Assembly (NCBI RefSeq): GCF_018035235.1
Contig: NZ_WPCV01000002.1
Coordinates: 248,001-312,000, forward strand
DNA length: 64,000 bases
Source: Citrobacter sp. On2M
GTDB taxonomy: Bacteria > Pseudomonadota > Gammaproteobacteria > Enterobacterales > Enterobacteriaceae
Reading direction: 5' to 3'
Position 1 is the stretch's first letter. Every line of letters starts with the position of its first letter. The notes under the pieces were generated by a model. That model did no database searches, had not been told where the DNA came from, and worked only from the letters and a program-made list of their open reading frames with translations. Of the stretch, positions 5,608 through 40,789 are shown one piece after another. A program made the position numbers and the translations under genes.

Positions 5608-5613
5608 ACATCA

Positions 5614-8017: not shown

Positions 8018-8030
8018 CCTCCTTCTCTGA

Positions 8031-8057: not shown

Positions 8058-8182
8058 AACCCTTCCTGTTGCTGTTAACAAAATCTGGTGGCTGGCAATC
8101 GCTCACTGCTGCCGTAATAATCAAAACGCGCGAAGGGGAAATATATCCCCAGAACAGAGACGATTTGGCATAAGGATGGTTA

Positions 8183-9013
8183 ATGAACTGGACACACGTA
8201 TTGTTGGCGGGGTATATCGGGGCGGTGATTGCTATCGTCATCGGCATGTTTCGCAAAAAAGGCTGGCTGGGCAAGCTCTCCGGCGCGGTGGTTTTTGTGG
8301 TGGCAATTGTCGCGTGGAATCTGTTTGATGTGCACTACCTGATCCCGCGGGAAAGCCCGAATTATGGGCTGACGGATGCGCAGAAATTTGAAAACGCGAT
8401 GCTGTCCATGCCCGTTTATCAGGTGCTTAAGGAGCAGGAGCCTGCGCTGTGGCAGAACATCCTCACCCAGGCAACGCAGCTGAAAGAGGCGGGGAAAAGC
8501 GAGCAACAGATTATCGACGCTATTCAGCCGCAGATCCTGCAGGTACAGATGGCGCGTTTGCAGCAGGCGCCTGATGCCAATGTGATCGAGTATATGAAGA
8601 TTAATCTCGAGCAGATTTCCGCGGTGGCAAAAGTGGGCAATGACGAATGTTTTCGCTTTTTGTTCCCGGCGGTGAAAGGTGGGATTAACCCAGTGCGTAT
8701 TATTCCGCGTGAGATCATGGATCGTCGTATGGCGAGTGATATGAGCATGATGTATGCCTCACATGGCCCAAAAAAACATACGGTCACGGCAGAAGAAAAA
8801 CAGCTGGCGCTTCAGGATCTGCAATCCATCAGCCCGGGTCTGGTACAGCGCTTTGGACCGGATATCCAAATCATGGCCGATCCGAGTAAAGGCGTGGGCA
8901 AAGAGAAAGTCGTCTGTGAAATGGTGCAAGATTTATGGTCACAGGTGCTGAAGCTGCCAACCGCGCGCGCGGCCGGCGTTATTCGGCTGATGCTCTCAGC
9001 CGAAATGCAGTAA
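8183..9013 (+). CDS. Conserved membrane-anchored protein of unknown function
   Basis: I do not recognise a family with a known function. The 276-residue protein has two hydrophobic N-terminal segments (about residues 5-22 and 30-50) and then a long soluble region with predicted helices and few charged clusters. Homologues occur at this place in Salmonella-type genomes, where old annotations called them a topoisomerase; nothing in the sequence supports that. The start has AAGGA 8 bases upstream. It ends at a shared terminator with convergent yjgM and appears to be a single-gene unit. Confidence 0.75.
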   Translation: MNWTHVLLAGYIGAVIAIVIGMFRKKGWLGKLSGAVVFVVAIVAWNLFDVHYLIPRESPNYGLTDAQKFENAMLSMPVYQVLKEQEPALWQNILTQATQLKEAGKSEQQIIDAIQPQILQVQMARLQQAPDANVIEYMKINLEQISAVAKVGNDECFRFLFPAVKGGINPVRIIPREIMDRRMASDMSMMYASHGPKKHTVTAEEKQLALQDLQSISPGLVQRFGPDIQIMADPSKGVGKEKVVCEMVQDLWSQVLKLPTARAAGVIRLMLSAEMQ

Positions 9014-9022
9014 CGTAACCAG

Positions 9023-9053
9023 AGCCCCTCGGCGTGAGGTCAGAGGGGCTTTA
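9023..9053. terminator. Terminator between the unknown membrane protein gene and yjgM
   Basis: AGCCCCTC (9023-9030) pairs with GAGGGGCT (9043-9050), followed by TTTAAC on the plus strand. The right arm lies inside the last codons of yjgM, so the terminator overlaps that coding region. Confidence 0.6.
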
Positions 9054-9543
9054 ACATCCGCACTTCACAATCTACATGTCCGGTACAGCCGAGCGCTTCG
9101 CTGATATGCTTAAACCCTAAATGTTCATACAGGCGGATAGCCTCGGTCAGAAATGCCGTCGTTTCAAGATAACACTGCTTAAAACCCTGCTCGCGGGCAT
9201 GGTCAAGCGCCATCAGCGCCAGCTTTTTCGCCAGCCCCTGACCGCGTGCGCTTGGGAGGAAGTACATCTTTTGCAGTTCGCAAATGTCCGGTTCGCTACA
9301 CCCTAATGGCGCAACGCCGCCGCCGCCCACGACTTCACCATTTTGCTCAACCACCCAGTAGGCTGCGCCCGGCTGGCTGTAAACCTGAAACAGCTCGTCC
9401 AGATTGGGATCGGCAACGGTATAGCCTTTATCGGCGGTCAGGCCGTATTCGGCGGAAACCTGACGGATAACGTGGGCAATAGCGGCGTTGTCGTCGGCGG
9501 TAATGCGGCGCAGCGTCGTTGAGACAGGTGTGATAACACTCAT
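9040..9543 (-). CDS. yjgM: GNAT-family N-acetyltransferase YjgM
   Basis: The 167-residue protein has the GNAT fold. The acetyl-CoA loop is near [14 protein letters not shown], following LQKMYF, and the substrate-side motif is [14 protein letters not shown]. Its length and sequence match E. coli YjgM, an acetyltransferase for which O-acetylserine has been suggested as a substrate. The open frame extends upstream to 9735 into valS, but homology and position favour the ATG at 9543. It is separated from valS by a strong terminator, so it has its own promoter. Confidence 0.85.
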
Positions 9544-9623
9544 AGCGAACTCATGACATAAAAGTGAGACATATGCAGTTAATAACACTGCGGTGAGGGG
9601 AAGTGCAAGCGAGGATAATTCAA

Positions 9624-9659
9624 GAAAAAGCCTCTGCGCGGGTGCGTCAGAGGCTTTTA
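9624..9659 (-). terminator. Rho-independent terminator of valS
   Basis: On the minus strand GCCTCTG, a 11-base loop, CAGAGGC and then TTTTTCTTG form a canonical terminator immediately after valS. On the plus strand the tract TTTTAT makes it partly bidirectional. Confidence 0.85.
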
Positions 9660-9703
9660 TCGTCTGCGGTGCCGGATACGCTACGCTTATCCTGCAAACA
9701 ATT

Positions 9704-12559
9704 TTATAGCGCGGCGATAACCGCCTGCTGCTCAATCAGCTTCGCTTTGGCTTCTGCGTAACCGTCCAGCTTCTCACGTTCTTTGGCGATCACCGCTTCC
9801 GGGGCGCGAGCAACGAAACCTTCGTTGGACAGTTTGCCTTCGATACGGGCAATCTCACCTTCAATTTTCGCCACTTCTTTTGCCAGACGCGCCAGTTCAT
9901 CATCTTTGTTGATGAGACCCGCCATCGGGATCAGTAGCTCGGCACCGTCGATGATTTTGGTCACGGAGACCGGACCTTTGTCATCGGCAGGTAGCACGGT
10001 GATGCTTTCCAGACGCGCCAGGTTCAGCAGGAAGCTCTTGTTATCGTTCACACGACGCATCGCATCCGCGCTGCAACCACGCAGCAACAGCTCCAGCGGT
10101 TTACCCGGGGCAATGTTCATTTCCGCGCGGATGTTACGTACGGCAACGATCGCCTGCTTCAGCCATTCGGTATCAGAAGCCGCCGCTTCATCAACCTGTG
10201 CGGCGTTATATTCCGGGAACGGCTGCAGCATGATGGTATCAGCGGTGTTGCCACAAATTACTTTCACGCGCTGCCAGATGGTCTCGGTGATGAACGGAAT
10301 AATCGGGTGCGCCAGGCGCAGCAGACCTTCCAGCACGGTGACCAGCGTATTACGGGTGCCGCGCAGTTCAGCATCAGTTCCTCCGGTCATTACCGGCTTG
10401 GTCAGCTCCAGATACCAGTCGCAGAACTGGTTCCAGGTGAATTCGTACAGGATGCCCGCGGCGATATCGAAGCGGAAGTTATCCAGCGCTTCGCGGTACG
10501 CTTTAACGGTCTGGTTGAATTCAGCCAGGATCCAGCGGTCGGCCAGCGACAGGGTCATTTCGCCGCCGTTAAAGCCGCAATCCTGATCTTCGGTGTTCAT
10601 CAGCACGAAGCGGCTGGCGTTCCACAGCTTGTTACAGAAGTTACGGTAACCTTCCAGACGCTTCATATCCCAGTTGATATCGCGACCGGTGGAGGCGAGT
10701 GCGGCCAGGGTAAAGCGCAGGGCGTCGGTGCCGTGCGGCTCGATGCCGTTCGGGAACTGCTTCTCGGTACGTTTGGCGATCTTCTCGGCCAGCTGCGGCT
10801 GCATCATGTTGCCGGTACGTTTTTCCAGCAGCTCCGGCAGGGAGATACCGTCGACCATATCCAGCGGGTCAATTACGTTGCCCTTGGATTTGGACATCTT
10901 CTGGCCTTCGTCGTCACGGATCAGACCGGTCATGTAGACGGTATGGAACGGAACCTGCGGCTTGCCGTTTTCATCTTTGATGAAATGCATGGTCATCATG
11001 ATCATGCGGGCAATCCAGAAGAAGATGATGTCGAAGCCGGAAACCATCACGCTGGTTGGGTGGAACTGACGCAGCGCGTCGGTATTTTCCGGCCAGCCCA
11101 GGGTAGAGAAGGTCCACAGCGCGGAGGAGAACCAGGTGTCGAGAACGTCTTCGTCCTGACGCAGCGCAACGTCGGCGCCGAGGTTGTTTTCCTGACGCAC
11201 TTCGTCTTCGGTACGGCCAACGTAGACGTTACCCGCCTCGTCGTACCATGCCGGGATACGGTGACCCCACCACAGCTGACGGGAGATACACCAGTCCTGA
11301 ATATCGCGCATCCAGGAGAAGTACATGTTTTCGTACTGCTTCGGTACGAACTGAATGTCGCCGTTCTCTACCGCTTCTACCGCCGGTTTCGCCAGCACAT
11401 CGGCACGGACGTACCACTGGTCGGTCAGCATCGGTTCGATAACCACGCCGCCACGGTCGCCGTAAGGTACGGTCAGATCGTGAGGTTTGATCTCTTCCAG
11501 CAGGCCCAGCGCGTCGATGGTTGCAACGATCGCTTTACGTGCAGCAAAGCGTTCCAGCTTCTGGAATTCAGCCGGGATTTCACTGGAGTAAACGTCAGAC
11601 TCTTCGCCTTTGGTATCGTACACTTCCGCCGTTTCGCGGATGTCGCCGTCAAAGGTCAGAATGTTGATCATCGGCAGGCCGTGACGTTTCCCGACTTCGT
11701 AGTCGTTGAAATCGTGTGCCGGGGTGATCTTCACGCAGCCGGTGCCTTTTTCCATGTCGGCGTGTTCGTCACCGACGATCGGAATGCGGCGGTTAACCAG
11801 CGGCAGGATCAGGAATTTGCCGATCAGATCTTTATAACGCGGATCTTCCGGGTTCACGGCCACGCCGGTATCGCCCAGAATGGTTTCCGGACGGGTAGTC
11901 GCCACGACCAGGTAATCTTTACCGTCAGCGGTTTTCGCGCCGTCGGCCAGTGGATAGCGGATGTGCCACATCGAGCCTTTAGACTCGCGGTTTTCCACTT
12001 CCAGATCAGAGATAGCAGTGCGCAGTTTCGGATCCCAGTTTACCAGGCGCTTGCCACGGTAAATCAGGTCTTCTTTGTACAGGCGAACAAAGACTTCTTT
12101 CACGGCATTGGAAAGACCTTCGTCCATGGTGAAGCGCTCGCGCTCCCAGTCAACGGAGTTGCCGAGACGGCGCATCTGACGGGTAATGGTGCCGCCGGAT
12201 TCCGCTTTCCACTGCCAGATTTTGTCGATGAAGGCATCGCGACCGTAGTCGTGACGGGTTTTACCTTCTTCAGCGGCAATCTTACGCTCAACCACCATTT
12301 GGGTGGCGATACCCGCGTGGTCGGTACCGGCCTGCCACAGAGTGTTTTTACCCTGCATGCGCTGGTAGCGAATCATGGTATCCATGATGGTTTGCTGGAA
12401 AGCATGACCCATATGCAAACTGCCGGTGACGTTCGGCGGCGGGATCATGATGCAGAAGGACTCTTTGCTTTCATCGCCGTTAGGTTTGAAATAGCCCTGC
12501 TTTTCCCAGTGCTCGTAAAGCGGCTGTTCGATATCTTGTGGGTTGTATGTCTTTTCCAT
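9704..12559 (-). CDS. valS: Valyl-tRNA synthetase
   Basis: This 951-residue class I synthetase charges tRNA-Val. The ATP-binding signature HMGH lies at residues 49-52 and KMSKS near residue 554. The inserted editing domain (CP1) lies between them, and a C-terminal coiled-coil arm is visible in the repeated Glu/Lys/Ala segment that ends the protein. Its start overlaps the holC stop by one base (TAATG), so the two are translationally coupled, as in E. coli. Confidence 0.97.
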
Positions 12560-25003: not shown

Positions 25004-25088
25004 GCCGGAGTGGCGAAATCGGTAGACGCAGTTGATTCAAAATCAACCGTAGAAATACGTGCCGGTTCGAGTCCGGCCTTCGGCACCA
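25004..25088 (+). tRNA. leuX: tRNA-Leu (anticodon CAA)
   Basis: The 85-base gene folds into a full type II tRNA. The acceptor stem GCCGGAG pairs with CTTCGGC with one G-U pair. The anticodon CAA is at 25038-25040 within a GTTGATT/AATCAAC stem context. A variable arm, a GGTTCGAGTCC T-arm and an encoded CCA end are present. It reads UUG codons. leuX is a frequent integration site for genomic islands, and A+T-rich foreign DNA begins right after it here. Confidence 0.97.
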
Positions 25089-25312: not shown

Positions 25313-27427
25313 ATGAGTGATGCATTCGGAATTTTTGGTCAAGAAGATATTTATTCTTTTAAAAAAACGGGGTCGTTTGGTCGTTTTTCAACAATTGAAA
25401 GTTTTCCAATAGAATTTTTTCTCACTTCCCTCAAGGCCAGCGAGCTTCATAATCTTACTTTTGCAAGAGATATTAAACCGGGTAAAAAAATAGACTTTGA
25501 TCAACTTCTTCAAAGAGATCTGGATATTGTAAGGGTTGAGACAGAAATTAAACCATATATTACAAATGCGGATTCAAAATCAAGAACCATATTTTTCCCT
25601 CCATTACTTGTTGCTGCAGTGCCTGTTTCTAAAAATACTATGGAAGAGTTTTACAGCAGACAACAAATCAATAGAACGAGTAGTGGAAATAGAAATTTCT
25701 ATGTTAGAACATGGGACGAGCTTTTTAAATTGACGTTAATGGAGGATGGTAATTATTCAATATTACCATCATTGGAAGAACCAGATAATTATATTTCTGT
25801 GGCTAGGGAACCATCTCAAATAGAAATAAATTTGTCAAATAATATTGAACGAGGAATTAAATTAATTGTAATTGATGGGCAACACCGTCTAAAAGCACTT
25901 CAAGAAGTATATGATGAAGATAGCAAGGGTGTTCTAAAAGAAATGACGGTGCCATTATGTATATTATTTTCACCAAATTCAACAAAAGAAGTTGCAGATA
26001 AATTAGAGAGTAATGGAATTACAATCCCTCGCGTTCCAGAAATTTTTAGACAGTTGTTTGTTGATGTAAATAAAAATGCAGAGCAAGTTGGCGGTCATTT
26101 TAATATTTTGCTGTCCGAAGGAAACATGGGTAGCTTGGCATGCAGGCTGTTTTGTGCACATGTATTAAATACGCAAGGTATTGAGGGGTTAGCTCAGATT
26201 GAATGGAATCAGAAAAAGAAAAAACTATCTACTGAAATTAATAGAGCTTATTATATAACTAGTATCGGAGTAATAGAAAAAGCATTATCTGAAACATTTG
26301 GTAAATTCAAAACAATAAACGACTATTTTATAAGTTTTGAGGATATAAAAGAAGCTGTTCAGCCTCCTTTAGATGATGATCATCTTGACTATCCTAAGGT
26401 TTCTTGGGATAAGTTTTCCTTATCGCAAAAGAAACATATAGTAAAGCAGATTCAGCAGCATGTTGTACCTTTGCTTGAAAGACTTTTTTTCAATAGTAAA
26501 TTATATGCACCCGCAACGGATTGTTTTCATCAAGAGATCGCCAAGCTTAAGAATAAATCAGATCATGATGCGCATGGTGGCGTTGTTTATCGTCCGGTTC
26601 TTGAATCTCTTTTAGAATATATGCCTATTCCTGAAACTGATAAGTATAGAGAGGCTCGACATAATTTAAGAGTGTTCGAAGAAGATATTAGAGATTGCAA
26701 AAGTAAAAATTGCTTTAGCATGCTGAACCATGCTATTTTCCAGCGGGCATTGTTTATGACTTGGTCTGAGATACTGAAAATTGGCAATCGAGTGTCAGTA
26801 AATAAAGATTTTGCTAATCAGTATTTTTTTGCATTAATTGATGAGTTTGCATCATATCCTTCTGATGTAATAGATTTTAAGAAAGGATACTGCCAGAGTT
26901 TTATATTTAATGGGGCTCGAGTTAACCCGACAAATGAAGTTAAAAATGGAATCTCTTATTTAATTTTATCCTTGTTATCAAGTAAAAGCACCCGTGATCG
27001 TCTGGCTAACTTAATAGACATAAAACCTGAAGATAGGGCATTGTCTGCATTTAATGAGGAAATAAGAAATACAGCCTATGCAAGTCTTAATAATTATATG
27101 TCATTATATAAAAAATACAGAGTGAAAGTTTTTAAGAGTAACTATCCGATTGATTCTACGATAGATCTTGATTTACGTCGTGAGCTTCAAGAGGAAGAAA
27201 ATAAGAAAAAAAGAGAGCTTAAAGAATTCAAAGACGGAGCCCTTTCAAAGGATAAACTGACAAATAGATTTGATGAAATGGTGAATGAGTGTATAAAGAT
27301 TGATATACTTAAAGCTCAAGAAGAATTAAGGGTATCATTAGGTCTGGAATTGGATGTTTTTGGTGTCAAAGATATATCATCCGATGTTTCTGATGATATT
27401 ATTGAAGACGAGTCAATTGACGAGTAA
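25313..27427 (+). CDS. DGQHR-domain (DndB-like) protein, large form
   Basis: The 704-residue protein carries the DGQHR motif at residues 188-192 within LIVIDGQHRLKAL. About 45 residues later comes FRQLFVDVNKNAEQVGG, which resembles the FADLNK segment of DndB. I therefore place it in the DGQHR/DndB superfamily, but it is about twice the length of DndB. Its C-terminal half (about 400-704) has no motif I recognise; residues 630-660 are rich in Lys and Glu and may form a coiled coil. The start ATG follows AAAGGAG at a spacing of about 10 bases. It is the first gene of a three-gene operon; the next starts 5 bases after its stop. Function is inferred: possibly a sensor or scaffold of a defence module. 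Confidence 0.8.
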   Translation: MSDAFGIFGQEDIYSFKKTGSFGRFSTIESFPIEFFLTSLKASELHNLTFARDIKPGKKIDFDQLLQRDLDIVRVETEIKPYITNADSKSRTIFFPPLLVAAVPVSKNTMEEFYSRQQINRTSSGNRNFYVRTWDELFKLTLMEDGNYSILPSLEEPDNYISVAREPSQIEINLSNNIERGIKLIVIDGQHRLKALQEVYDEDSKGVLKEMTVPLCILFSPNSTKEVADKLESNGITIPRVPEIFRQLFVDVNKNAEQVGGHFNILLSEGNMGSLACRLFCAHVLNTQGIEGLAQIEWNQKKKKLSTEINRAYYITSIGVIEKALSETFGKFKTINDYFISFEDIKEAVQPPLDDDHLDYPKVSWDKFSLSQKKHIVKQIQQHVVPLLERLFFNSKLYAPATDCFHQEIAKLKNKSDHDAHGGVVYRPVLESLLEYMPIPETDKYREARHNLRVFEEDIRDCKSKNCFSMLNHAIFQRALFMTWSEILKIGNRVSVNKDFANQYFFALIDEFASYPSDVIDFKKGYCQSFIFNGARVNPTNEVKNGISYLILSLLSSKSTRDRLANLIDIKPEDRALSAFNEEIRNTAYASLNNYMSLYKKYRVKVFKSNYPIDSTIDLDLRRELQEEENKKKRELKEFKDGALSKDKLTNRFDEMVNECIKIDILKAQEELRVSLGLELDVFGVKDISSDVSDDIIEDESIDE

Positions 27428-27432
27428 CCAGT

Positions 27433-28560
27433 ATGGATATTTTAACTATAAACTTAAATAAATATAAAGGTGTTGAGTCTATAGTGAAAGAGGATATTCT
27501 CAATATAAAAGTGGATTATTTGTTGATTAATGGAGATAAAGATAGTCTGGATTTTTTTAAGAAGGATTTTACCAAAAAGTTTTTGTATTTAGGGTTTTCT
27601 CCTTTGTCTGAAAATGAAATAGCAGGGCTTGCTGCCCTGCTTAGTTTTCTTAATGGGGCAAGTAAATATAATTTGAAGTACTATGGAGAAAATAACTGGA
27701 ATAACACATTGGATCCGTTTGCTATTTCATTAATTGAGTATCTAAAATCATCGGACGTGAATAAATTAATATTTCATACATCAAGTATTACAGATGGTTT
27801 TATTGAGTCGTATAATTTCCTCCCAAATTTTAAAAATACAGTACTTCCCTTATTCAAATTTAATAGAGTAATTTACTCCTTATATACAACATCTATAGGT
27901 GATTGCCAATTTAAAGATATGGATGTGAATCTTATTAAGTCTCTCAATAATACTTCAATTCACAATAAATTATCTGGTAACTTGTCAACATTTAGTGAAA
28001 GAATACCTGAGTTTACTTCTTTAATTACTTGTATGGAGATGTACTTGCATTTCTCCAAAAAAAAAGAAGTGAAAGCACTACTATTCTACGTTGCATTGTT
28101 TCTAAATATCTCAATCTTTAATCGAAGTAGACAAGAATTTGCTATTGCCTACTTATTTTTGCAACGAGCTATTGAAACGGCTTTAATTTATTTCTATCTA
28201 TCTTCTGGTGTTTTAGAAATAAATGAATATGACAGGCTTTCTTTTAGAGGTGAGCGTAATTCAATACAAGGAGTTGGTTTACTGATAAAAGAATATTTTT
28301 CCAGGAAGAATGAACCTGATCTTGAAAAAAAAATACGTAAGCTTAATCACATTAGGAATTGCAGTGTATTAGCCCATGGACTTTATTTACCCTCAAGCGC
28401 TGATTATGACTCATTATACCAAGCTTCAAAAGAATTTGTAGATAGACTAATCTTACAAGAAGAATGCGTTGCGTTTTATAAGATTTCATTATCATCCCTT
28501 AAACCGCTCTCAAGAGAGTTAGTTAGAGAAAGAGTTATCGGTTTTTTTACTGATATTTGA
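27433..28560 (+). CDS. Unknown protein with a C-terminal HEPN-like motif
   Basis: I do not recognise the full 375-residue protein. The C-terminal third (about residues 215-345) is helical and contains R308-N309-x5-H315 in KLNHIRNCSVLAHGLY. This fits the R-x4-6-H motif of HEPN ribonucleases, including its frequent following glycine. An earlier helix with RSRQEFAIAYLFLQRAIETA resembles the first HEPN helix. The N-terminal part (1-200) looks alpha/beta and could be a ligand-sensing domain, but I see no clear CARF signature. It starts 5 bases after the DGQHR gene and its TGA overlaps a possible downstream ATG, so the three genes are tightly coupled. RNase activity is inference. Confidence 0.7.
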   Translation: MDILTINLNKYKGVESIVKEDILNIKVDYLLINGDKDSLDFFKKDFTKKFLYLGFSPLSENEIAGLAALLSFLNGASKYNLKYYGENNWNNTLDPFAISLIEYLKSSDVNKLIFHTSSITDGFIESYNFLPNFKNTVLPLFKFNRVIYSLYTTSIGDCQFKDMDVNLIKSLNNTSIHNKLSGNLSTFSERIPEFTSLITCMEMYLHFSKKKEVKALLFYVALFLNISIFNRSRQEFAIAYLFLQRAIETALIYFYLSSGVLEINEYDRLSFRGERNSIQGVGLLIKEYFSRKNEPDLEKKIRKLNHIRNCSVLAHGLYLPSSADYDSLYQASKEFVDRLILQEECVAFYKISLSSLKPLSRELVRERVIGFFTDI

Positions 28561-28592
28561 TGCTATCTTTTTATAAAATTTTAGAGACTAAC

Positions 28593-30314
28593 ATGAACAT
28601 AAAAGCAGATGGTAAAAATTTAGAGCAAATTTTCTATGGATTAGATACTAGGTATTTTATACCTCGATACCAGCGTGACTATTCTTGGACGGCAAATAAT
28701 GAATTAAATGAATTATGGAATGATGTTGTATCATCGTATAAAGATGGTAAAGAGTATTTTATGGGAACATTGCTTTTAGCTTGTAAGGAAAAGAATACAT
28801 CCCATTATGATATTGTCGATGGGCAGCAAAGAACGATTAGTTTTATGTTGTTATTATCAGTGATTCAAGACTACTCTAAACTTGTGATAGATGGTGCTAT
28901 TAATGAAAACGATCTCAATTGTTCCTCTGAACGGAGAGAGGATGCTGCAGATTCTCTTTTTGCTAGTGTAAACAGACATATAAAGCAAGATGATTATTAT
29001 TTACGTGCGAATAATAAAGATTCGAAATTTTTCGAAGATGCCTTAGATATATCTCAAAGGGAAGTCACAACTGCCATTAGTAATAAATCAAATAGAATAA
29101 CAAAAGCCAAAAGATTCTTTCAGGATAAGATAAAAAAAGAATTTTTTGGGCGAAATAATTCGTTAATTGATTTGAAGAAATTTTTTCGATTTATCATAAC
29201 GAAATTGAAATTTGTGACTATTACTGTTGAAGATGACTTCGACGCATATGTGATATTTGAGTCTTTAAACTCAAAAGGTATGGATTTATCTGTAGCGGAC
29301 TTATTAAAAAATAAAATATTGAGTAATATATCTAGTAATTATCAAGACGCAGCACTTAGTGAATGGGATGATTTGGTGAAAAAAATACAAATGATTCCTG
29401 CCAGCTTTGTCGACTATATCAAGATCTACTGGAATTCATATGAGTCAACGGATGTTACGAAAGCTACTTTGTATCAATCGATTAGGAAAAATATTGGTAG
29501 CAATGAGGTAACAACAAGAAAGTTTTTAAAAGAACTAATAAATAACGCTGACTCTTTTGATCGATTGAAAAATAAATCGAATTTAAATTGGCCAAAAATA
29601 AACTCTTCAGATAAGTGGGCTGAAAAAGTAGCTGAAATGAATTTACTAGGCTACACTATTCATTTGCCCTGTTTTTTATATGCTTTGAAAAATAATGAGT
29701 CAATTTTAGAAAGATTAGCTACTTTATCTCTTAACCTACTTTTCAGATGGGTTACTATTTGTGATTATGGCATTGGGGAAATTGATTCATTATTCAAAAA
29801 GATTTTGTCTGACCTCAAGGCTAAAAAAGAAAATTCTGAAATATTAAGTAACTTCATTCCATTGATTGAAAAAGTGCAAAATTCATTTTCTGAAAGTTTT
29901 TCCTCTTATGAAACAGAAAGTTCAACTATACTTAAATATATTGCATGTAAAATAGACTTACATTTGGGGGCAACTAAAGCATTGATACCAGACTTTTTAG
30001 AGGTCGATCTTGAACATATTCTTCCTAAGAATTATGAGGTTTGGGGAGAATACATGGACTCTTTTAGCAAACCATACAATAGGTGGGTAAATTCTGTCGG
30101 GAACGTAATTTTATTAGAAAAAGGTAAGAATAGAAAAATTAAAAATTCAATATTTGTTATTAAACGTGATGTCTTTGCTAGTTCAGAGTTTTTATGTGCT
30201 AAAGATATCTCTAAATTAACCAATTGGGATGAAGGAAGTATTTATCAAAGATGCGAGTATCTAGCAGATTTAGCTAATAAAATATGGAAATTAGATGCTG
30301 ATATGTGCGCATGA
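28593..30314 (+). CDS. DUF262/DUF1524 protein (GmrSD / SspE-like)
   Basis: The protein of about 573 residues begins with a DUF262 domain showing IPRYQRDYSW (23-32) and the DGQQR motif (76-80). These are the ParB-like nucleotide-binding signatures of GmrS and SspE. The C-terminus is a DUF1524 HNH-type nuclease: EHILPK with His475, then GNVILL and the asparagine of GKN. Related proteins nick or cut DNA; SspE is stimulated by phosphorothioate DNA. An ATG at 28560 overlaps the upstream stop (TGATG) and would add 11 residues without a Shine-Dalgarno; 28593 has AGAG 6 bases upstream and starts where the family does. All key residues look intact. Confidence 0.85.
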   Translation: MNIKADGKNLEQIFYGLDTRYFIPRYQRDYSWTANNELNELWNDVVSSYKDGKEYFMGTLLLACKEKNTSHYDIVDGQQRTISFMLLLSVIQDYSKLVIDGAINENDLNCSSERREDAADSLFASVNRHIKQDDYYLRANNKDSKFFEDALDISQREVTTAISNKSNRITKAKRFFQDKIKKEFFGRNNSLIDLKKFFRFIITKLKFVTITVEDDFDAYVIFESLNSKGMDLSVADLLKNKILSNISSNYQDAALSEWDDLVKKIQMIPASFVDYIKIYWNSYESTDVTKATLYQSIRKNIGSNEVTTRKFLKELINNADSFDRLKNKSNLNWPKINSSDKWAEKVAEMNLLGYTIHLPCFLYALKNNESILERLATLSLNLLFRWVTICDYGIGEIDSLFKKILSDLKAKKENSEILSNFIPLIEKVQNSFSESFSSYETESSTILKYIACKIDLHLGATKALIPDFLEVDLEHILPKNYEVWGEYMDSFSKPYNRWVNSVGNVILLEKGKNRKIKNSIFVIKRDVFASSEFLCAKDISKLTNWDEGSIYQRCEYLADLANKIWKLDADMCA

Positions 30315-30319
30315 AAAAT

Positions 30320-30382
30320 ATAATTATAAACCATAATTTATAATTATGAGGCATAAGCCACCACCTAAGTAGGTGGCTTATG
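30320..30382. terminator. Bidirectional terminator between the DUF262 operon and dndE
   Basis: Two hairpins stand side by side. The first is an A+T-only 11-bp inverted repeat (ATAATTATAAA at 30320-30330 and TTTATAATTAT at 30337-30347). The second has 11-bp arms CATAAGCCACC (30352-30362) and GGTGGCTTATG (30372-30382). They separate two convergent operons. Confidence 0.7.
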
Positions 30383-30446
30383 ATTGCAAAGGAATATCTA
30401 GATGGCTCAAATGATATTTTTTGCTATTAAATATCGATTATTTAAC

Positions 30447-30800
30447 TCACAAGGATTTAACAATATCTTTTAAGCTACGGTAATTTCTTAATGCCGCAAT
30501 CCCATCTTCAACATGTGCAGCCCAAGCTCTGATCATTTCTTTCTGATCTAACTGTGGATAAAGCATCTTCAGCACAAGTTCTGTTGTATGCATCGTTTCA
30601 CCAAGCCAGGTAATTTTATCAAGCACAAGCTGGCCGTCTAACTTCCTATTATCTTTCTTTGGTAAAAAACGAAACTCACTTTCTACAGAACGGAAAAATG
30701 CAATACGAGCGGCTACGTTTGGAGTAACCCCTGTAAATCCTTTTAGTCTTTTGAGCTGTTCTTCAGTCTGGCGAGTAAGCTGCATTCGATTCGGGAGCAT
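30447..30800 (-). CDS. dndE: DNA phosphorothioation protein DndE
   Basis: The 117-residue basic protein opens MLPNRMQLTRQTEEQLKRLK and contains the GVTPNVAARIAFFRSVE segment typical of DndE, a small tetrameric protein that binds nicked DNA and is needed for sulphur incorporation. Its ATG overlaps the dndD stop by one base. It is the last gene of dndBCDE; no dndFGH follows, because the next gene is convergent. Confidence 0.9.
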   Translation of the reverse strand: MLPNRMQLTRQTEEQLKRLKGFTGVTPNVAARIAFFRSVESEFRFLPKKDNRKLDGQLVLDKITWLGETMHTTELVLKMLYPQLDQKEMIRAWAAHVEDGIAALRNYRSLKDIVKSL

Positions 30801-32800
30801 TAAATTGCCTCCTTAGTGAGTTGCCAGAAATATCCTGGTTTCAACGCTGATGATTTGGTATGCGCATTAAACACAATTTCATAGGCATGAGAGATGTCGT
30901 CACGCAATTGGTCCACAAAGTAGCGTTCATCTACTTCAGTATCAGTTGACAGTAGTACAACCTGATGGCTGGCAAATGGGAAATAGTGATTAATTAACTT
31001 ATCTCTGTGCTGTGAATCTAATCGTCCTAATGGAGTGTCAATAATCACAGGTAAATCACGGCCAGAGGTTTTGGCTAATGCTTCGAGAATTGCAATAGCA
31101 TAAATTTGTTTCTCACCTGCTGAAAGCAACTTACGATTTATTACATTACCTTTTTCATCAATAAGTTCAACATCAAATGTTTCTGGATTAATGTGCGCAT
31201 TGAGCTGCAAATCTTCTTTACGAGCTAGTTTTCGATAAGCTACTTCGAAATTTGTTGATAGTGTTTTTACGCGTGCTTGAGTTAAAACTTCACTGTAGCG
31301 ATCGAGCAAGTTAATCGTTTCTTGAGCATTATTAAATGCACTATTAAAACTGTGCTGATTGCGGGCAGTATCATGAGCTTTTTGCACTTGACGCACGCAA
31401 TCTAACTGTTGTTGTTTTGTCCGTTTCGCGTCTTCAAGTAATGCGCGATATTCTTGCTTCTTCAGTTCACGTTGTTTATCAAGCTCACGAATTTTCTCAA
31501 ATATATCAAGAAGCTGATCATCCTCTGGTGCTCGAGCAATATTGGCTGCAGCCTGCTCCAGCTGTTCTTCAATTTCAACTAATTGATTACGATAAAGATC
31601 AAAACGCTGCCAGGCTTTTTTACTGTCTTGCTCGATAGCTTGTTGAAGCATGCCTGCTTCACGTTCTGATATGTCGAAAAGTAGTTCACCCTTTGGTTTG
31701 GTTGCAAGATAATCTTTCAAATTATCCTCAATTGCTTCTGCAGCTATTTTCCCAGAAGTGCTGGAACGGAACGCTATATCGTTTTTAAGCTGAGTTAGGA
31801 ATTGACCAAGCTCACTTTCAAAGTTTCTGGCTTGCTTGATTTGTGTTTCTGTTGAGATCTGCTCGAGCAATCGTGTTAACGTTTTTGGAGCCAATGCATA
31901 AGGTAATGAACCATCACATTCATTACGTAACGCTTTTTCAAGACGGTCTTTTTCTTTCAACAGCGTTTCGACTTTTTGCTTTTCCTGAGCTTTGGTTTGA
32001 GCAAACGCTCCACCCTGAGCATTGAGTAGGCCTTCATAGCGAATAATCTCTTTGGACAACAGATCGATTCGTATCTTTGAAAAATCCGCTTTCTCAAGCA
32101 GTTGTTCAGTTTGGAATGCGTACTCTTTTATTTGTTTTTCCAGTACAGCAAGTTGCTGCTGCTGTGTAGCTGCAAGTTGGCTCGATTGCTGACGCTTAAT
32201 AAAAATCATTAAGTCATTGCGTAACTTGGCAATCAAATCCAGCCCTAACAGGCGGCGAACTGCGGTTTTCAAAATATTACCCGACTCGTCCTCTGCAAGT
32301 TCGGCAATTTTCTCGCCATCAAAGAAGAATAAATCAGCAATACCATGTGGGATGAGTTCATTGAGAAAGCCCTGGCATTGATCATAATCCAGTTCCTCTA
32401 AAGGAATGCCATCTTGTAAAAGCGACAGTTGGTCTTTTTTCCCTTTCTTCCAGGTTCGGGCTACCGTGAACTCTGCTTCCTGGCCACCTTTGTTATAGGT
32501 AAAGGTCAATTCTATTGCAGCCTCACTGGGTTGCTCACTAGAGTTTATTCCATTATGAATTAATGAGCTAAGCTCATTAATGTAGTCTTGGTTTTGTGTT
32601 GATAAGCCGAATGCCAGCCGACCATATAGCGCCAAACGAATGGCAGAGAGAATGGATGTTTTACCCGCACCATTTAACCCACCGAACAGTACGATAGGGC
32701 GGGGGTTGTCATCATTAGGGCGTTTTCTGGGCGCTAAATCGATGATATGTGTCCCATTGAAAACACGAAAGTTACGCAGCACCAGTTGTTTAATTAGCAT
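30800..32800 (-). CDS. dndD: DNA phosphorothioation ATPase DndD
   Basis: The 666-residue SMC/RecN-like ATPase has Walker A GLNGAGKTS at residues 41-49. Long coiled-coil segments rich in Glu, Gln, Lys and Leu occupy about 210-510, and the C-terminus has the ABC signature LLSAGEKQIYAIA followed by Walker B LPVIIDTPLGRLD. DndD is thought to remodel DNA during phosphorothioation. The open frame extends 14 codons upstream, but ATG 32800 has AAGGA ahead and matches the family start MLIKQL. It overlaps the end of dndC by 11 bases. Confidence 0.93.
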   Translation of the reverse strand: MLIKQLVLRNFRVFNGTHIIDLAPRKRPNDDNPRPIVLFGGLNGAGKTSILSAIRLALYGRLAFGLSTQNQDYINELSSLIHNGINSSEQPSEAAIELTFTYNKGGQEAEFTVARTWKKGKKDQLSLLQDGIPLEELDYDQCQGFLNELIPHGIADLFFFDGEKIAELAEDESGNILKTAVRRLLGLDLIAKLRNDLMIFIKRQQSSQLAATQQQQLAVLEKQIKEYAFQTEQLLEKADFSKIRIDLLSKEIIRYEGLLNAQGGAFAQTKAQEKQKVETLLKEKDRLEKALRNECDGSLPYALAPKTLTRLLEQISTETQIKQARNFESELGQFLTQLKNDIAFRSSTSGKIAAEAIEDNLKDYLATKPKGELLFDISEREAGMLQQAIEQDSKKAWQRFDLYRNQLVEIEEQLEQAAANIARAPEDDQLLDIFEKIRELDKQRELKKQEYRALLEDAKRTKQQQLDCVRQVQKAHDTARNQHSFNSAFNNAQETINLLDRYSEVLTQARVKTLSTNFEVAYRKLARKEDLQLNAHINPETFDVELIDEKGNVINRKLLSAGEKQIYAIAILEALAKTSGRDLPVIIDTPLGRLDSQHRDKLINHYFPFASHQVVLLSTDTEVDERYFVDQLRDDISHAYEIVFNAHTKSSALKPGYFWQLTKEAI

Positions 32801-34424
32801 GTTCGTTTTCCTTACTGGTAAGCAAGTATGATTCACTCGCATCTATAATTCTGCGCTGTAAAACCTGAAGCTCCGCTTCCAGCTTTGCGACTTCCTCTTG
32901 ATGAATATCTCGCTCGTTGCGTTTCTGCAATGTTTCTTGTTGCTGTTTAATTTCTTCTAGGCTTCCCCAGTCTTGTTTGAGAATTGTACCAAGTTTATCA
33001 AATACCCCCTGACGTCTGCTCAGGCCTTCCATCGAGACTTCCAGTTCGATTAACTTCATAACCATCTCAGGTTCAACGTCAAATCCTTGGGCAATTTGTA
33101 CAAGCAAATCAGCATCACTGGCATCAAAACGAGATTGATCGTCAATGACCCAATCCAGATCCTTTTGATAAACCTCGCGGTAAATACCCGGCAATGAGTC
33201 ATACCAATCCGGTTCGTTGGGATCTTTCAACCATTCCTGACGGATTGCATGTAGCTCTGGTTGTGTTATCAGCGTAATTTTATGACCTTGAGCATTCATA
33301 TCACGCTCAATTTCCAATAATTCCTTTAACCATTGTTGTCTGTATTTTAACCAGTACGGACCAGGGACGTGCTTACGTTCGGCACTGATTTCTTCGCCGT
33401 CTTTAGCGTATTGGTAACTTACTTTCCCTGTACGACGCTTGTAGTTACGGAAAGTATCTTTATTTGCCGGGTCAGTTGTGAAAGCTAACAGATCGCGATA
33501 TTTCAGCAGTGGGGACATCCATTCCTCACCATTCTGAATAAGGCTTTCCATCGCTTTATCTTTAGTCACGACAGTACACGTCCAGCAGCCAAAGCGGGAA
33601 TTACCGCACGAAGGAGTACTGTCATCGATTACCAATGGGCACTCGCCTTGTGCAGAGGAATCCATATAGAGCGTCCAAAGTGGGCGGTTATTTCCACCCC
33701 ATGGATTTTCCCACTCATCAATATCTTCCGGAGCATAACGGAATGCGCCACGCAGAAGTTTCCACACGTCTTCGACATCCCATGTGTCTATAGGTGTGTA
33801 AATAAAGGCATTAGGCAGTGTGGTGTGTCGGGCAAGACGCGAACCATCAATTTTATGCTTTGCGATAACCTGGGCACGTGATGCGCTTTCGCTGCTACGC
33901 GAACCCAGAACAACAATGACCTCGTCAAATTGGCTAACTTTATCCTTGATAAAGTCGCTGACCGGATTGATCTTCATGCGTTCTGTACACCAACGGAAGC
34001 TACGTGTTGGTGCTGGGTAGCCTTTACCTAGTAAATTCACCCAAAAGGTTTCGTGAGTTTTTGGCATAACGGCGTGTTGAGTGATTGGTAGTCCATCACG
34101 TTTTGCACCGGCCTCAATTAACTGCATTGTCTTTTTGATTAAATCGACAACAACGGGGGTTTCTACCAGTGTATCGGATGACACCACAAATATATCTTTG
34201 GTACGCATTTCTGGTGGAAGACCCAGCAAAGCCAGGTAAACAAGAGTGATCACTGCTGAAGAGTCTTTACCACCGCTATAGCCAATGACCCATGGACGTT
34301 TATCTGCGCAGTATACTCTTTGTACCTCAGCGACATATTCAGCTAGCGGATGTCCTGCAAACTGTTCTTGATTGATGAATTCTTCATAGTCGGCCAGATC
34401 GTAGGCCTGAGTTAATTTACTCAT
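32790..34424 (-). CDS. dndC: DNA phosphorothioation sulfurtransferase DndC
   Basis: The 544-residue protein is a PAPS-reductase-like ATP pyrophosphatase with PP-loop SGGKDSS at residues 50-56. Iron-sulphur cysteines lie in WCTERMK and in the cluster SCGNSRFGCWTCTVV. DndC activates the DNA backbone and passes sulphur to it; the sulphur donor DndA is absent here, and housekeeping IscS probably supplies it, as in other enteric Dnd systems. It overlaps dndB by 4 bases (ATGA) and dndD by 11, so the operon is tightly coupled. All key residues are intact. Confidence 0.94.
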   Translation of the reverse strand: MSKLTQAYDLADYEEFINQEQFAGHPLAEYVAEVQRVYCADKRPWVIGYSGGKDSSAVITLVYLALLGLPPEMRTKDIFVVSSDTLVETPVVVDLIKKTMQLIEAGAKRDGLPITQHAVMPKTHETFWVNLLGKGYPAPTRSFRWCTERMKINPVSDFIKDKVSQFDEVIVVLGSRSSESASRAQVIAKHKIDGSRLARHTTLPNAFIYTPIDTWDVEDVWKLLRGAFRYAPEDIDEWENPWGGNNRPLWTLYMDSSAQGECPLVIDDSTPSCGNSRFGCWTCTVVTKDKAMESLIQNGEEWMSPLLKYRDLLAFTTDPANKDTFRNYKRRTGKVSYQYAKDGEEISAERKHVPGPYWLKYRQQWLKELLEIERDMNAQGHKITLITQPELHAIRQEWLKDPNEPDWYDSLPGIYREVYQKDLDWVIDDQSRFDASDADLLVQIAQGFDVEPEMVMKLIELEVSMEGLSRRQGVFDKLGTILKQDWGSLEEIKQQQETLQKRNERDIHQEEVAKLEAELQVLQRRIIDASESYLLTSKENEHAN

Positions 34425-35506
34425 GAGACAACCATTTGAGCTTCAAGCTCCTGTTCTTCAGGAGTGAGGGGAATCGACAGTGCAAGTTTAAGTGCATTAC
34501 AGGTGAGCTGAATAGCGGTTCCCGTCTTACTCAGCTTGCCATGTTGCATTGCACGTTTAACCATTTCGGGATTGCTTTTACGCCAGTCGAAGGATTTAAG
34601 TTTCAATATTTTCTGTTGCCATTGTTCTGGCTCTTCAATGATCAGTGAGCGCCCCAAAAGTCCCAGTGCTTGCAAGCCAATACCGTGTGCATGCACGTAG
34701 TCTTGCCGTAGCTGAGCGGGGGAAACTTCTTTCCGTGCAGCAAGCTGCCAATCGGGCATAACTTTGTAAATAGCTTGCCAATATTGCGTGGCAATAGCCG
34801 TGTTATCTTCAATACTGCCTACTTTCGGGTCTTTACCTAAAAGCGCTCGAGTTGCCTGTTTAATGCTACTCAGTGTAAATAACTTATTGGAAAGCATACT
34901 GATGCTGGACTTTTCAAGCTCAGTAAGGCCGATAAACGGCTCTATCGTCATTGCCAGATATCGTGCCAGATTTGAACTTACATCACGGTGATCGTAAAGA
35001 GCTGAAAGCGATGGGCTAGGGCGAATCGCGTATTTATTTAAGTCAGCAAACATCTGCTGACTACGTCTTAACCCTTCATCGACAAAAAACAGCACAGGGA
35101 TGTTGTCCTGGCCGAGTTCTGGACGCTCGGCTAAAGCATCTTCAATCGCTTTACGGCGATGTTGACCATCATTAATGAGGATCTGGGCATCCATCGGAAC
35201 TCGAAGCGTTCCTAGGTTATTTGAGTTTTCGTACTCATCAAACTGAACGTCAACAGCAATAGACGCTGTCAATGCAGAGAAGACATAATCTTTCGGATTC
35301 TCAAGTAGATATCTGACCATCTCAGGTATTCTGGATTTGTTCAGGATGCGTTGAGCACGCAGCTCTGGTGGAACATCGGTTTCATCAAAGCTAAAAATTT
35401 TGGGTATGATGCGCATAGGGCAGGTTGCAATGTAAAATGGCCTGCCTGCTTGTACTCCGCGTACAGCGGGGAAAGAATAGCAGTAATCAGCGTCGAAGTT
35501 CGCCAT
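34421..35506 (-). CDS. dndB: Dnd operon regulator DndB
   Basis: The 361-residue protein has the DGQHR motif at 113-117 and, further on, QQMFADLNKYAIRPS, both typical of DndB. In Salmonella the homologue (DptB) represses the modification operon. Two palindromes of the form TACG-N10-CGTA lie 31-144 bases upstream of this gene, which fits autoregulation. It heads dndBCDE and its stop overlaps the dndC start. The large DGQHR protein at 25313-27427 is a distant second member in the same island. Confidence 0.92.
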   Translation of the reverse strand: MANFDADYCYSFPAVRGVQAGRPFYIATCPMRIIPKIFSFDETDVPPELRAQRILNKSRIPEMVRYLLENPKDYVFSALTASIAVDVQFDEYENSNNLGTLRVPMDAQILINDGQHRRKAIEDALAERPELGQDNIPVLFFVDEGLRRSQQMFADLNKYAIRPSPSLSALYDHRDVSSNLARYLAMTIEPFIGLTELEKSSISMLSNKLFTLSSIKQATRALLGKDPKVGSIEDNTAIATQYWQAIYKVMPDWQLAARKEVSPAQLRQDYVHAHGIGLQALGLLGRSLIIEEPEQWQQKILKLKSFDWRKSNPEMVKRAMQHGKLSKTGTAIQLTCNALKLALSIPLTPEEQELEAQMVVS

Positions 35507-35650: not shown

Positions 35651-35911
35651 CTACATCTGGGTACGGAACTTACGTATCAAATCACCACGATTTATAAACT
35701 CTCCTCCCTTGTAGTATCTTTCTGGCCAGATAACCTCTGGTGGGATGCCAATTGCCTTAGCAATGATGATTTCACCTTTAGGCCATGGTCTCTCCAGAGC
35801 ATTGCCCAGTGTGGACGAACTCAATCCTGCCTCTCTGGACAGTGCTGCCAGTGACATTCCTTTTTTATGCAATGCCGCAATGATGTCGGCTTTGTGCCAA
35901 TTTGTGTTCAT
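35651..35911 (-). CDS. Ner/Nlp-like helix-turn-helix protein
   Basis: The 86-residue protein is mostly one helix-turn-helix domain. The segment KKGMSLAALSREAGLSSSTLGNALERPWPKGE (shown here only in part as the recognition region, residues 16-45) is typical of Mu Ner and the Nlp/SfsB family, and the following IAKAIGIPPEVIWPERY is also characteristic. It lies upstream of dndB on the same strand and may be read through into it. Four CTACG-N5-CGTAG palindromes separate it from the divergent XRE gene. It probably represses a promoter of this cluster; the target is inferred. Confidence 0.8.
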   Translation of the reverse strand: MNTNWHKADIIAALHKKGMSLAALSREAGLSSSTLGNALERPWPKGEIIIAKAIGIPPEVIWPERYYKGGEFINRGDLIRKFRTQM

Positions 35912-37930: not shown

Positions 37931-39334
<1,404 letters not shown>

Positions 39335-39346
39335 ATAATCATTATG

Positions 39347-39372
39347 GCCCCATCTCAGGATGGGGCTTTTTT
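39347..39372 (+). terminator. Terminator of tpl
   Basis: GCCCCATC, loop TCAG, GATGGGGC and TTTTTT make a canonical Rho-independent terminator 13 bases after the tpl stop. Confidence 0.9.
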
Positions 39373-39523
39373 GTATTCCTTTTCTATGAACAGGAAGCCT
39401 TTGCGGTGCCCGTTACCGTGGCATAACTAAAAAAAGTAAACCCTGACTCCGACATTTTTATTATCCGCATGATGTACAAATGACAGCTGTAATTATAACG
39501 AATAGTCTACAGGAACATTTATC

Positions 39524-40789
39524 ATGGATATTAATGCCATTGAGCGACAGAGTAGTACCCCCGGACTGATTAGCGGAACCATGTTGGTTATCGCAACCGT
39601 AGTGGGTGGCGGGATGTTTTCCCTGCCGATTGCGATGGCCGGCGTATGGTTTCCCGGTGCCTCTGTTATTCTTCTGTTTATCGCCATCATGATGTTATTA
39701 ACCGGTCTGATGCTGGTTGAAGTCAATCTGCATTATGGCGCCGGTGCCAGTTTTAATACCTTTACTCAGGATTTATTAGGCCGAAAGTGGAATATCGTGG
39801 TCGGTATCGCTTTCGGCTTTGTGCTGTATATTCTGACCTATGCCTATATCTCCGGTTCGTCGGCGGTGATGGCGCAAACCGTGTTCAAATACAGCGGCGT
39901 GCGCTTTCCGGCGAATATTTCGGTGGTGATCGTCAGTATGTTAGTAGGGGCGATTGCCTGGTACAGCTCCCTGCTGGTTGGACGCATCACTACCGTGCTG
40001 ATTATCGGTAAGTTTGTGGCGTTCTTTGCCACGTTCTCCGGGCTGATTGGCCATATCGAAGTGGCAAAACTTGTCGACAGCGTGGCGGTGGCGTTGCCCA
40101 ATTCGCAGTATTTGCCCTATATCCTGATGACGCTGCCGTTCTGCATCATCTCGTTTGGTTTTCACGGTAACGTACCGAGCCTGGTCAAGCTGTATGGCAC
40201 GAGCGGGATCTCGAATATTACGCGTTCGATTATCATCGGCACGCTGTTTGCCCTGCTGTTATATATTTTCTGGCTGGGTGTGACGATGGGTAATATCAGC
40301 CGTGCCTCATTCCCGCCGATTATCGCCAAAGGCGGCAATATCGACGTGTTTGTCGAGGCTATCAGCGGGCTGTTCACCAGCCGTTATATGGATCTGATCC
40401 TGACCTTCTTCGGCAACTTCGCGGTAGCCAGCTCACTGCTGGCGGCAACGCTTGGTCTGTTCGATTATATCGCCGACCTGTTCCACTTCCCGGATGACGG
40501 TATAGGCCGTCTGAAAACCGCGCTGGTGACCTATTTCCCACCTGCTGCTGTGTGCTTCTTCTTCCCGAACGGTTTTGTGCATGCGATTGGCTATGCCGGT
40601 CTGGCCTTTACCATCTGGAGCGTGATCCTGCCGCCGTTCCTGGTGAAAGCCGCGCGAAAACGTTTTCCGACTGCCAGCTATACCGCGCCGTGTAATAACA
40701 CCGTGCTCAATCTGGTAATAATCTGCGGGGCGATTGTCTATCTGACGGTTGTTCTGGATGTATTTGGTCTGCTGCCAACGTTTCGTTAG
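39524..40789 (+). CDS. tutB: Tyrosine permease TutB
   Basis: The 421-residue inner-membrane protein belongs to the aromatic amino acid permease group of TyrP, TnaB and Mtr. It has about eleven hydrophobic segments, begins TPGLISGTMLVIATVVGGGM, and contains the family segment LPFCIISFGFHGNVPSLVKLY. It brings tyrosine in for Tpl. It has its own gap of about 190 bases after the tpl terminator, so it may be read through at low level or from its own promoter. Confidence 0.93.
   Translation: MDINAIERQSSTPGLISGTMLVIATVVGGGMFSLPIAMAGVWFPGASVILLFIAIMMLLTGLMLVEVNLHYGAGASFNTFTQDLLGRKWNIVVGIAFGFVLYILTYAYISGSSAVMAQTVFKYSGVRFPANISVVIVSMLVGAIAWYSSLLVGRITTVLIIGKFVAFFATFSGLIGHIEVAKLVDSVAVALPNSQYLPYILMTLPFCIISFGFHGNVPSLVKLYGTSGISNITRSIIIGTLFALLLYIFWLGVTMGNISRASFPPIIAKGGNIDVFVEAISGLFTSRYMDLILTFFGNFAVASSLLAATLGLFDYIADLFHFPDDGIGRLKTALVTYFPPAAVCFFFPNGFVHAIGYAGLAFTIWSVILPPFLVKAARKRFPTASYTAPCNNTVLNLVIICGAIVYLTVVLDVFGLLPTFR

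What the first reader, a model, noticed from the sequence alone, without database searches (positions are those of the whole stretch)
25313..35506. dndBCDE without dndFGH, facing a three-gene DGQHR / HEPN-like / DUF262-DUF1524 operon
The phosphorothioate modification genes are complete, but the usual restriction genes dndFGH are missing. Convergent to them is a tight operon whose third product has the DUF262 plus DUF1524 layout of SspE and GmrSD, a family in which SspE senses phosphorothioates. I infer that this operon is the missing effector, or a separate defence system sharing the island. The combination of a large DGQHR protein and a HEPN-like protein with such an effector is not one I know as a named system.
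Basis: partly seen in the sequence, partly recalled or inferred. Interest (0 to 1): 0.82.

Follow-up and report, generated by a model that had tools for sequence, protein, structure and literature searches.

The report
Swappable nuclease cassette beside sulfur-DNA genes
Next to genes that write sulfur marks into DNA, this bacterium carries a three-gene cassette made of a sensor-like protein and two probable nucleases, and relatives of the sensor-like protein elsewhere keep company with sulfur-marking genes too, so it is probably an accessory defence arm of that marking system.

Summary
A tight operon (25313-30314, +) encodes a 704-aa DGQHR protein, a HEPN-type protein and a GmrSD_N+GmrSD_C (DUF262-DUF1524) protein, and converges on complete dndBCDE (30447-35506, -). 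No DndH was found in the genome. Relatives of the DGQHR protein, found by its sequence alone, gave 22 distinct loci. All 22 come from genomes or plasmids with phosphorothioate (PT) genes: 15 beside dnd or ssp genes, 3 beside incomplete ones, 4 with dndC elsewhere in the genome. Both Dnd and Ssp machines are represented. In 14 of 22 a HEPN-like gene follows. But the trio is no fixed unit: of these 14 pairs 5 stand with dndFGH, 5 with a GIY-YIG-type gene, 3 with neither, and only the window's with DUF262-DUF1524. That third protein resembles DndI (published 2024 as an effector coupling to iscS-dndBCDE) but falls in another clade; its nearest relative also converges on dndEDCB, beside dndFGH. Best reading: a cassette that joins a PT-linked sensor-RNase pair to a DndI-like DNA nuclease. 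Linkage to PT is well supported; mechanism is inferred.

The parts
25004..25088 (+). tRNA-Leu(caa), island anchor
   Evidence: ARAGORN; the interval from here to the conserved stretch 37964-40789 is 2.3-77.9 kb in the 13 of 17 genus genomes that have both anchors on one contig (distances worked out by hand)
25313..27427 (+). Large DGQHR (DndB-like) protein P0001, 704 aa
   Evidence: DGQHR at 188-192; hhalign of its family to DndB 92% probability, E 5e-7, 208 columns; under all family cut-offs
27433..28560 (+). HEPN-type protein P0002, 375 aa, RN-x5-HG motif at 308-316
28557..30314 (+). DUF262-DUF1524 (GmrSD_N + GmrSD_C) protein P0003, 585 aa from TTG 28557, 584 aa from the likelier ATG 28560; YQR with Y38, DGQQR 88-92, EHILP with H487
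30447..30800 (-). dndE
   Evidence: TIGR03184 80.8 bits, over cut-off
30800..32842 (-). dndD
   Evidence: TIGR03185 499.9 bits, over cut-off
32790..34424 (-). dndC
   Evidence: TIGR03183 544.1 bits, over cut-off
34421..35506 (-). dndB
   Evidence: TIGR03233 455.1 bits, over cut-off
35651..35911 (-). Small HTH protein (PF13693) upstream of dndB, possibly a regulator
   Evidence: Pfam 115.9 bits; role not tested

Best explanation
The operon is an AT-rich cassette in the variable slot that faces dndE, and it joins two accessory modules. Module 1 is the DGQHR-HEPN pair. The DGQHR protein, of the DndB kind, is proposed to monitor PT status or the PT machine with a bound nucleotide and to hold the HEPN protein in check; when a phage disables or outruns modification, the HEPN RNase is released and stops the cell. 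Module 2 is the DUF262-DUF1524 protein, proposed to be an NTPase-gated HNH nickase that, like DndI, lets go of PT-marked self DNA and cuts unmarked DNA, and so serves as the main or only DNA restriction arm here, where no DndH was found. Shown here: gene content, domains, conserved motifs, and linkage of the DGQHR family to both Dnd and Ssp. Inferred: sensing, restraint, RNase and nickase activities, and cooperation of the two modules.
For: 22 of 22 DGQHR loci come from genomes or plasmids with PT genes, found without selecting for them (contexts). Four are Ssp loci, so the tie is to PT and not to one gene cluster. A HEPN-like gene follows in 14 of 22; RN-x5-HG stands in 12 of 12 full-length rows aligned, two of them about 95% identical. 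The model of P0002's C-terminal half matches HEPN structures (2hsb, 1wol, 2q00, 4nqf, 1ufb; Foldseek probability 0.96-0.99), though with E-values of 0.58-1.6. Of the 14 pairs, 5 have dndFGH, 5 a GIY-YIG-type gene, 1 (the window) DUF262-DUF1524, and 3 none of these in the stretch held. P0003's best PDB match is DndI 9jfl, E 5e-22, and its nearest relative in 394 order genomes (G382, 34-36% identical) also converges on dndEDCB (clade support 99/98). The trio is 30-33% GC against 41-46% for dnd; in Pectobacterium the pair is 29-32% against 46-47% for dndFGH and dndBCDE. DndI with iscS-dndBCDE, without dndFGH, protects laboratory E. coli (PMC11662687).
Against: No activity was measured. DUF262-DUF1524 inside the operon is seen in 1 of 22 loci only, so cooperation of modules 1 and 2 has no comparative support. 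8 of 22 DGQHR loci have no HEPN-like neighbour (L018-L020, L031-L033, L109, L147), and L018-L020 have no dnd within 10 kb. Three pairs (L023, L024, L029) show no dndFGH, GIY-YIG or DUF262-DUF1524 partner, though L024 is a short contig and L029 has PbeA/PbeC-like genes. P0003 is far from DndI (23% to the DndI-type protein L082; in the tree L082 has a very long branch, so its place is unsure). The tyrosine used for PT sensing in DndI is in P0003 but also in 5 of 12 DUF262 proteins not known to be PT-linked (F in 5, motif not matched in 2). Residues 1-106 and 125-191 of P0002 are modelled with pLDDT under 50, and the P0001 model (pLDDT 81) has no credible solved match. The profile search did not find the HEPN-like protein of L029, which rests on alignment and motif.
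Confidence: 0.55

Rival explanations
1. Only P0003 works with Dnd (a DndI-like system); the DGQHR-HEPN pair is a regulator and a loosely attached toxin with no part in restriction here.
For: DndI suffices with iscS-dndBCDE in the published work, and 61 of 568 dndBCD genomes there have dndI without dndFGH (PMC11662687).
Against: DGQHR-HEPN is the part that follows PT genes (14 of 22 DGQHR loci), while 6 of P0003's 7 other matches at E<=1e-40 have no PT gene near.
Confidence: 0.2
2. The DGQHR protein tunes PT density or dnd transcription as DndB does, and the HEPN protein answers DNA damage by P0003; nothing guards the PT machine.
For: DndB is described as an ATP-dependent repressor (passages of PMC12704722 and PMC10853773), and the DGQHR family aligns to DndB.
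Against: Most Dnd loci with the large DGQHR protein also keep a normal dndB, and Ssp loci carry the DGQHR protein too.
Confidence: 0.13
3. The trio is a PT-independent defence system that shares a tRNA-Leu island hotspot with dnd.
For: The site is a hotspot, and DUF262-DUF1524 proteins often stand without PT genes.
Against: 22 of 22 DGQHR loci with PT genes, in several phyla and near different tRNA genes, against 22 of 394 order genomes with DndC.
Confidence: 0.08

Closest known systems
IscS-DndBCDE-DndI (Salmonella Cerro 87; PMC11662687, parts 1-2 of 5 and passages seen)
   Same: dndBCDE faced by a DUF262+DUF1524 protein with DGQQR and HNH-type motifs; DndI is P0003's best PDB match
   Different: P0003 is 23% identical to a DndI-type protein and in another clade; it follows DGQHR-HEPN and is not in a dndFGHI operon
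SspABCD-SspE
   Same: DUF262+DUF1524 effector of a PT machine; large DGQHR proteins occur in Ssp loci too
   Different: The window has Dnd, not Ssp; P0003 (585 aa) hits SspE models weakly (45.4 bits, model length 771)
DndBCDE-DndFGH with intervening genes
   Same: Same convergent layout; the slot between dptH/dndH and dndE holds varying genes (PMC4373003 passages report 1-3 hypothetical proteins there)
   Different: No DndFGH found; the cassette begins 0.2 kb after the tRNA
Dnd-associated HEPN, PIN and URI nucleases (Rakesh et al. 2024, PMC10853773; outline, section 17 and passages seen)
   Same: HEPN, PIN and GIY-YIG-type (URI) nucleases at the edges of Dnd loci, proposed as suicide backups
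   Different: In what I saw no DGQHR partner of HEPN and no tie of such a pair to Ssp; 'DUF262' and 'DndI' do not occur in the main text. Its supplements could not be opened
PADLOC Orf5 (PDLC02691) and HEC-06 (PDLC04154)
   Same: P0003 scores 780.7 and 333.5 bits
   Different: Model names only; I found no statement of what system Orf5 belongs to (listing only)

Membership tests
IscS-DndBCDE-DndI | complete dndBCDE, cysteine desulfurase supplied by IscS | tested here: inconclusive
   dndBCDE met; no dndA among the eleven frames read; iscS not searched
IscS-DndBCDE-DndI | DUF262+DUF1524 effector next to dndBCDE | tested here: met
IscS-DndBCDE-DndI | effector orthologous to DndI | tested here: not met
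   23% identity and separate in the tree, with the caution that the DndI-type row has a very long branch; that row scores 9jfl at 3e-69, P0003 at 5e-22
IscS-DndBCDE-DndI | PT-sensing tyrosine (Y25 of DndI) | tested here: inconclusive
   Y38 of P0003 is the counterpart, but Y also stands in 5 of 12 other DUF262 proteins
IscS-DndBCDE-DndI | PT-stimulated ATPase, nicking, toxicity without PT | not testable with these tools
   -
SspABCD-SspE | SspBCD modification genes in the locus | tested here: not met
   the locus encodes DndBCDE
DndFGH restriction | DndF, DndG and DndH present | tested here: inconclusive
   none among the frames read; DndH 0 matches in the whole genome but without a positive control; DndF and DndG not searched genome-wide
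HEPN RNases | R-x4-6-H motif (recalled definition) | tested here: met
   RN-x5-HG in 12 of 12; R308, N309, H315, G316 invariant in the 10 rows of A3
HEPN RNases | helical HEPN fold | tested here: inconclusive
   probability 0.96-0.99 to HEPN entries but E 0.58-1.6; Pfam 19.7 of 27 bits
HEPN RNases | RNase activity | not testable with these tools
   -
GmrSD family | GmrSD_N and GmrSD_C over Pfam cut-offs | tested here: met
GmrSD family | modification-dependent cleavage | not testable with these tools
DndB (TIGR03233) and DGQHR_dnd_1 (TIGR04172) | score over the curated cut-off | tested here: not met
   P0001: no TIGR03233 hit up to E 1, TIGR04172 15.7 of 450 bits

The most novel reading that the evidence does not exclude
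The large DGQHR protein and its HEPN partner are an undescribed PT guard: a sensor that reads phosphorothioate status in Dnd and in Ssp cells and fires a swappable effector (HEPN RNase, GIY-YIG-type nuclease, and with smaller DGQHR relatives apparently membrane proteins) when the mark or the machine fails. Here it shares an operon with a second, DndI-independent lineage of DUF262-DUF1524 nucleases that took up PT discrimination on its own.
Probability: 0.35. Interest if true: 0.78.

Novelty: new variant of a known kind. Interest (0 to 1): 0.6.

Why it matters
Many dnd loci lack dndFGH, and what acts on invading DNA there is largely open. This locus offers a concrete candidate nuclease (P0003) and an accessory pair whose sensor-like half follows PT modification across two different machines, which points to a shared sensing layer. 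If the pair guards the PT system, it would show how PT-marked cells could answer phages that block modification.

Tried and rejected
Rejected: the trio as one fixed three-gene system (seen in 1 of 22 loci); P0003 as DndI's orthologue; the YQR tyrosine as proof of PT sensing.

Led nowhere: viral contigs, 12 pattern matches, none encoding a relative; megablast of the trio against 5,426 E. coli genomes, no match, which says little because megablast also missed dndC there while blastn then found dndC in 204 genomes; P0002 in plasmids, none; PDB sequence searches with the DGQHR and HEPN proteins, nothing credible; fold search of P0001, nothing credible; no near repeat of the tRNA 3' end in the window (best other 20-mers differ at 5 places); 'orf5' with phosphorothioate in papers, nothing relevant in the listing. 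Promoter-like sites were at chance level (42 found, 40.5 expected); terminator-like sites were 17 against 9.3 expected and were not used.

Against my reading or left out of counts: two weak, short DGQHR hits of the class search (E 4e-4 and 6e-4) are not among the 22. L111 (G712, 382 aa) has no PT gene recognised in 19 kb; L110 (G718, 433 aa) lies in an operon with a DndC-like gene. With them it would be 23 of 24. L025 was dropped as a copy of G539. The order sample's L084 (G547) has a 533-aa frame with a weak DGQHR-profile hit (E 0.0015) behind a GIY-YIG-like frame, also not counted. PIN in L024 rests on 29% over 86 aa. The 219-aa frame of L147 was not checked as GIY-YIG. L147's and L109's ssp genes rest on the record's annotation, L109's also on BLAST. 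That the E. coli slot proteins are membrane proteins is judged by eye, plus an AgrB Pfam hit of 24.0 (cut-off 23) bits for one.
Full report
What is there. The window (G000:C3:248001-312000) has tRNA-Leu(caa) at 25004-25088. From 25313 a + strand operon encodes a 704-aa DGQHR protein (P0001), a 375-aa HEPN-type protein (P0002) and a 585-aa GmrSD_N+GmrSD_C protein (P0003). dndE, D, C and B face it on the - strand, all over NCBIfam cut-offs. dndA and dndFGH are not among the eleven frames read; a search of the whole genome with a Pectobacterium DndH was empty, without a positive control. The trio is 30-33% GC, dnd 41-46%.

How widespread. With P0001 or a small alignment of it I found matches in 1 of 17 genus genomes, 2 of 295 family, 4 of 394 order and 3 of 369 class genomes, two of the last weak and short, 16 loci in the genome-contig scan, 2 of 72,556 plasmids and no viral contig. 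The window's genome is counted in each genome sample. After removing duplicates (L025 is G539) there are 22 loci, with frames of 626-775 aa or, in L030, fragments: the window, G102, G537, G539, G459, L018-L024, L026-L033, L109 and L147.

Link to PT. PT modification genes lie within the stretch held in 18 of 22. Fourteen have dnd genes: the window, G102, G537, L021-L024 and L026-L032. Among these L024 shows only dndE and a cut dndD at a contig end, L030 is decayed, and L032 shows a DndD piece at the edge of the stretch. Four have ssp genes: G459, L033, L109 and L147. The other four are G539, whose dndBCDE lies near the end of another contig, and L018-L020, whose genomes have DndC elsewhere. In one search, 17 of the 19 genomes given had a DndC hit, 16 over the cut-off; the one under it, G459, is its SspD, and the two without a hit are those of L024 and L033. 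As background, 22 of 394 order genomes have DndC over the cut-off; of the four DGQHR genomes there three have it and the fourth has SspBCD (Fisher p 6e-4). The searches did not select for PT genes.

Partners. A HEPN-like gene follows in 14 of 22: the window, G102, G537, G539, G459, L021-L024 and L026-L030. In G459 it is a Swt1-like HEPN under Pfam's cut-off with another spacing of the motif, and in L030 a fragment. RN-x5-HG is present in 12 of 12 full-length rows aligned. A DndFGH set stands beside the pair in 5: G102, G537, G539, L026 and, in decay, L030. A GIY-YIG-type gene precedes DGQHR in G459, L021, L022, L027, L028, L032, L033 and L109; these share a G-x-Y, Y-x-G, R, E, P pattern, with weak or no Pfam hits. 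So of the 14 pairs 5 have dndFGH, 5 GIY-YIG, 1 DUF262-DUF1524 (the window) and 3 (L023, L024, L029) none of these in the stretch held. PIN proteins occur in G102, G537, L024, L026 and L030; PbeA/PbeC-like genes in L021 and L029. In the tree of 19 DGQHR proteins the window's row lies nearest to L018-L021 by path and not with the enterobacterial dndFGH-linked rows, but no well-supported small group holds it.

The slot is variable. One search fetched the loci of 20 of the 22 DndC genomes of the order; 14 of the 20 show DndH near. Profiles of the HEPN-like family found nothing in these loci; the DGQHR profile found DndB proteins, a 384-aa protein in L090 and, weakly (E 0.0015), a 533-aa frame in L084. 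In six E. coli loci opened, out of 204 of 5,426 genomes with a dndC match, the slot before dndE held nothing (1), a small hydrophobic protein with a small DGQHR protein, split in two frames in two cases (3), a DUF262 protein with an ATP-dependent nuclease (1), or a restriction endonuclease with a small protein (1). This agrees with PMC4373003 (passages), which reports 1-3 hypothetical proteins there and insertion at a leu tRNA. In the window's genus the interval from this tRNA to the next conserved stretch is 2.3-77.9 kb in 13 of 17 genomes, the other four lacking both anchors on one contig.

Gene 3. P0003's best PDB match is DndI 9jfl (5e-22). Among 394 order genomes 8 match at E<=1e-40: the window's, G382 (converging on dndEDCB, with dndFGH) and six with no PT gene recognised in the 14-15 kb fetched. 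The tree groups P0003 with G382 (99/98) and leaves a DndI-type protein apart on a very long branch. So either two DUF262-DUF1524 lineages became tied to Dnd or one diverged strongly; I favour the first without proof. DndI works with iscS-dndBCDE without dndFGH, nicks DNA and harms cells without PT; 61 of 568 dndBCD genomes have dndI and no dndFGH nearby (PMC11662687).

Mechanism. That P0003 is the PT-gated DNA nuclease here is inference from DndI and from position. That P0001 senses PT and restrains P0002 is inference from linkage to two PT machines, homology to DndB, the HEPN motif, and the proposal in PMC3506569 (passages) that immunity proteins restrain attached toxins. PMC10853773 (outline, section 17, passages) already places HEPN, PIN and URI nucleases at Dnd loci as suicide backups. 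My searches for such a pair in print cover open-licence PMC papers only, and I saw listings of most hits and passages of some; I found no description of it.

Verdict. Observation confirmed, interpretation partly supported, a new variant of a known kind. The striking part is a DGQHR protein, mostly paired with HEPN, that follows PT modification across Dnd and Ssp.

Noticed in passing
L110 (G718), 7555-12288: Operon of a DndC-like protein (39% over 316 aa to the window's DndC), a DUF262 protein, a GIY-YIG-type protein and a small DGQHR protein; no DndD or DndE was recognised in the 18 kb fetched.
   Followed up: partly
L149 4906-6599, L151 and L152 4917-6596 (E. coli), L078 5412-7105: Before dndE a small hydrophobic, probably membrane, protein sits with a small DGQHR protein (TIGR04172-like, under its cut-off, in L149 and L151). 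In L090 a GIY-YIG-like protein takes its place. Suggests DGQHR plus swappable effector as a wider theme.
   Followed up: partly
L084 (G547), 4072-6087: A GIY-YIG-like 136-aa frame followed by a 533-aa frame with a weak DGQHR-profile hit, near dndEDCB and next to a second dndE-like frame.
   Followed up: no
L030 (Pantoea symbiont): A dndFGH-DGQHR-HEPN-PIN-dndEDCB island present but decayed into fragments.
   Followed up: no
L018-L020 (Thiomargarita, Marithrix): Large DGQHR proteins, the window's nearest relatives by identity (37-39%), stand away from dnd in genomes that have DndC elsewhere.
   Followed up: partly
L109 and L147 (Asticcacaulis plasmids): Large DGQHR protein upstream of SspABCD-type genes, with a kinase and a DUF262 protein converging from the other side.
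   Followed up: partly
window 35651-35911: Small HTH protein (PF13693) 145 bases upstream of dndB, a candidate regulator of the dnd operon.
   Followed up: no
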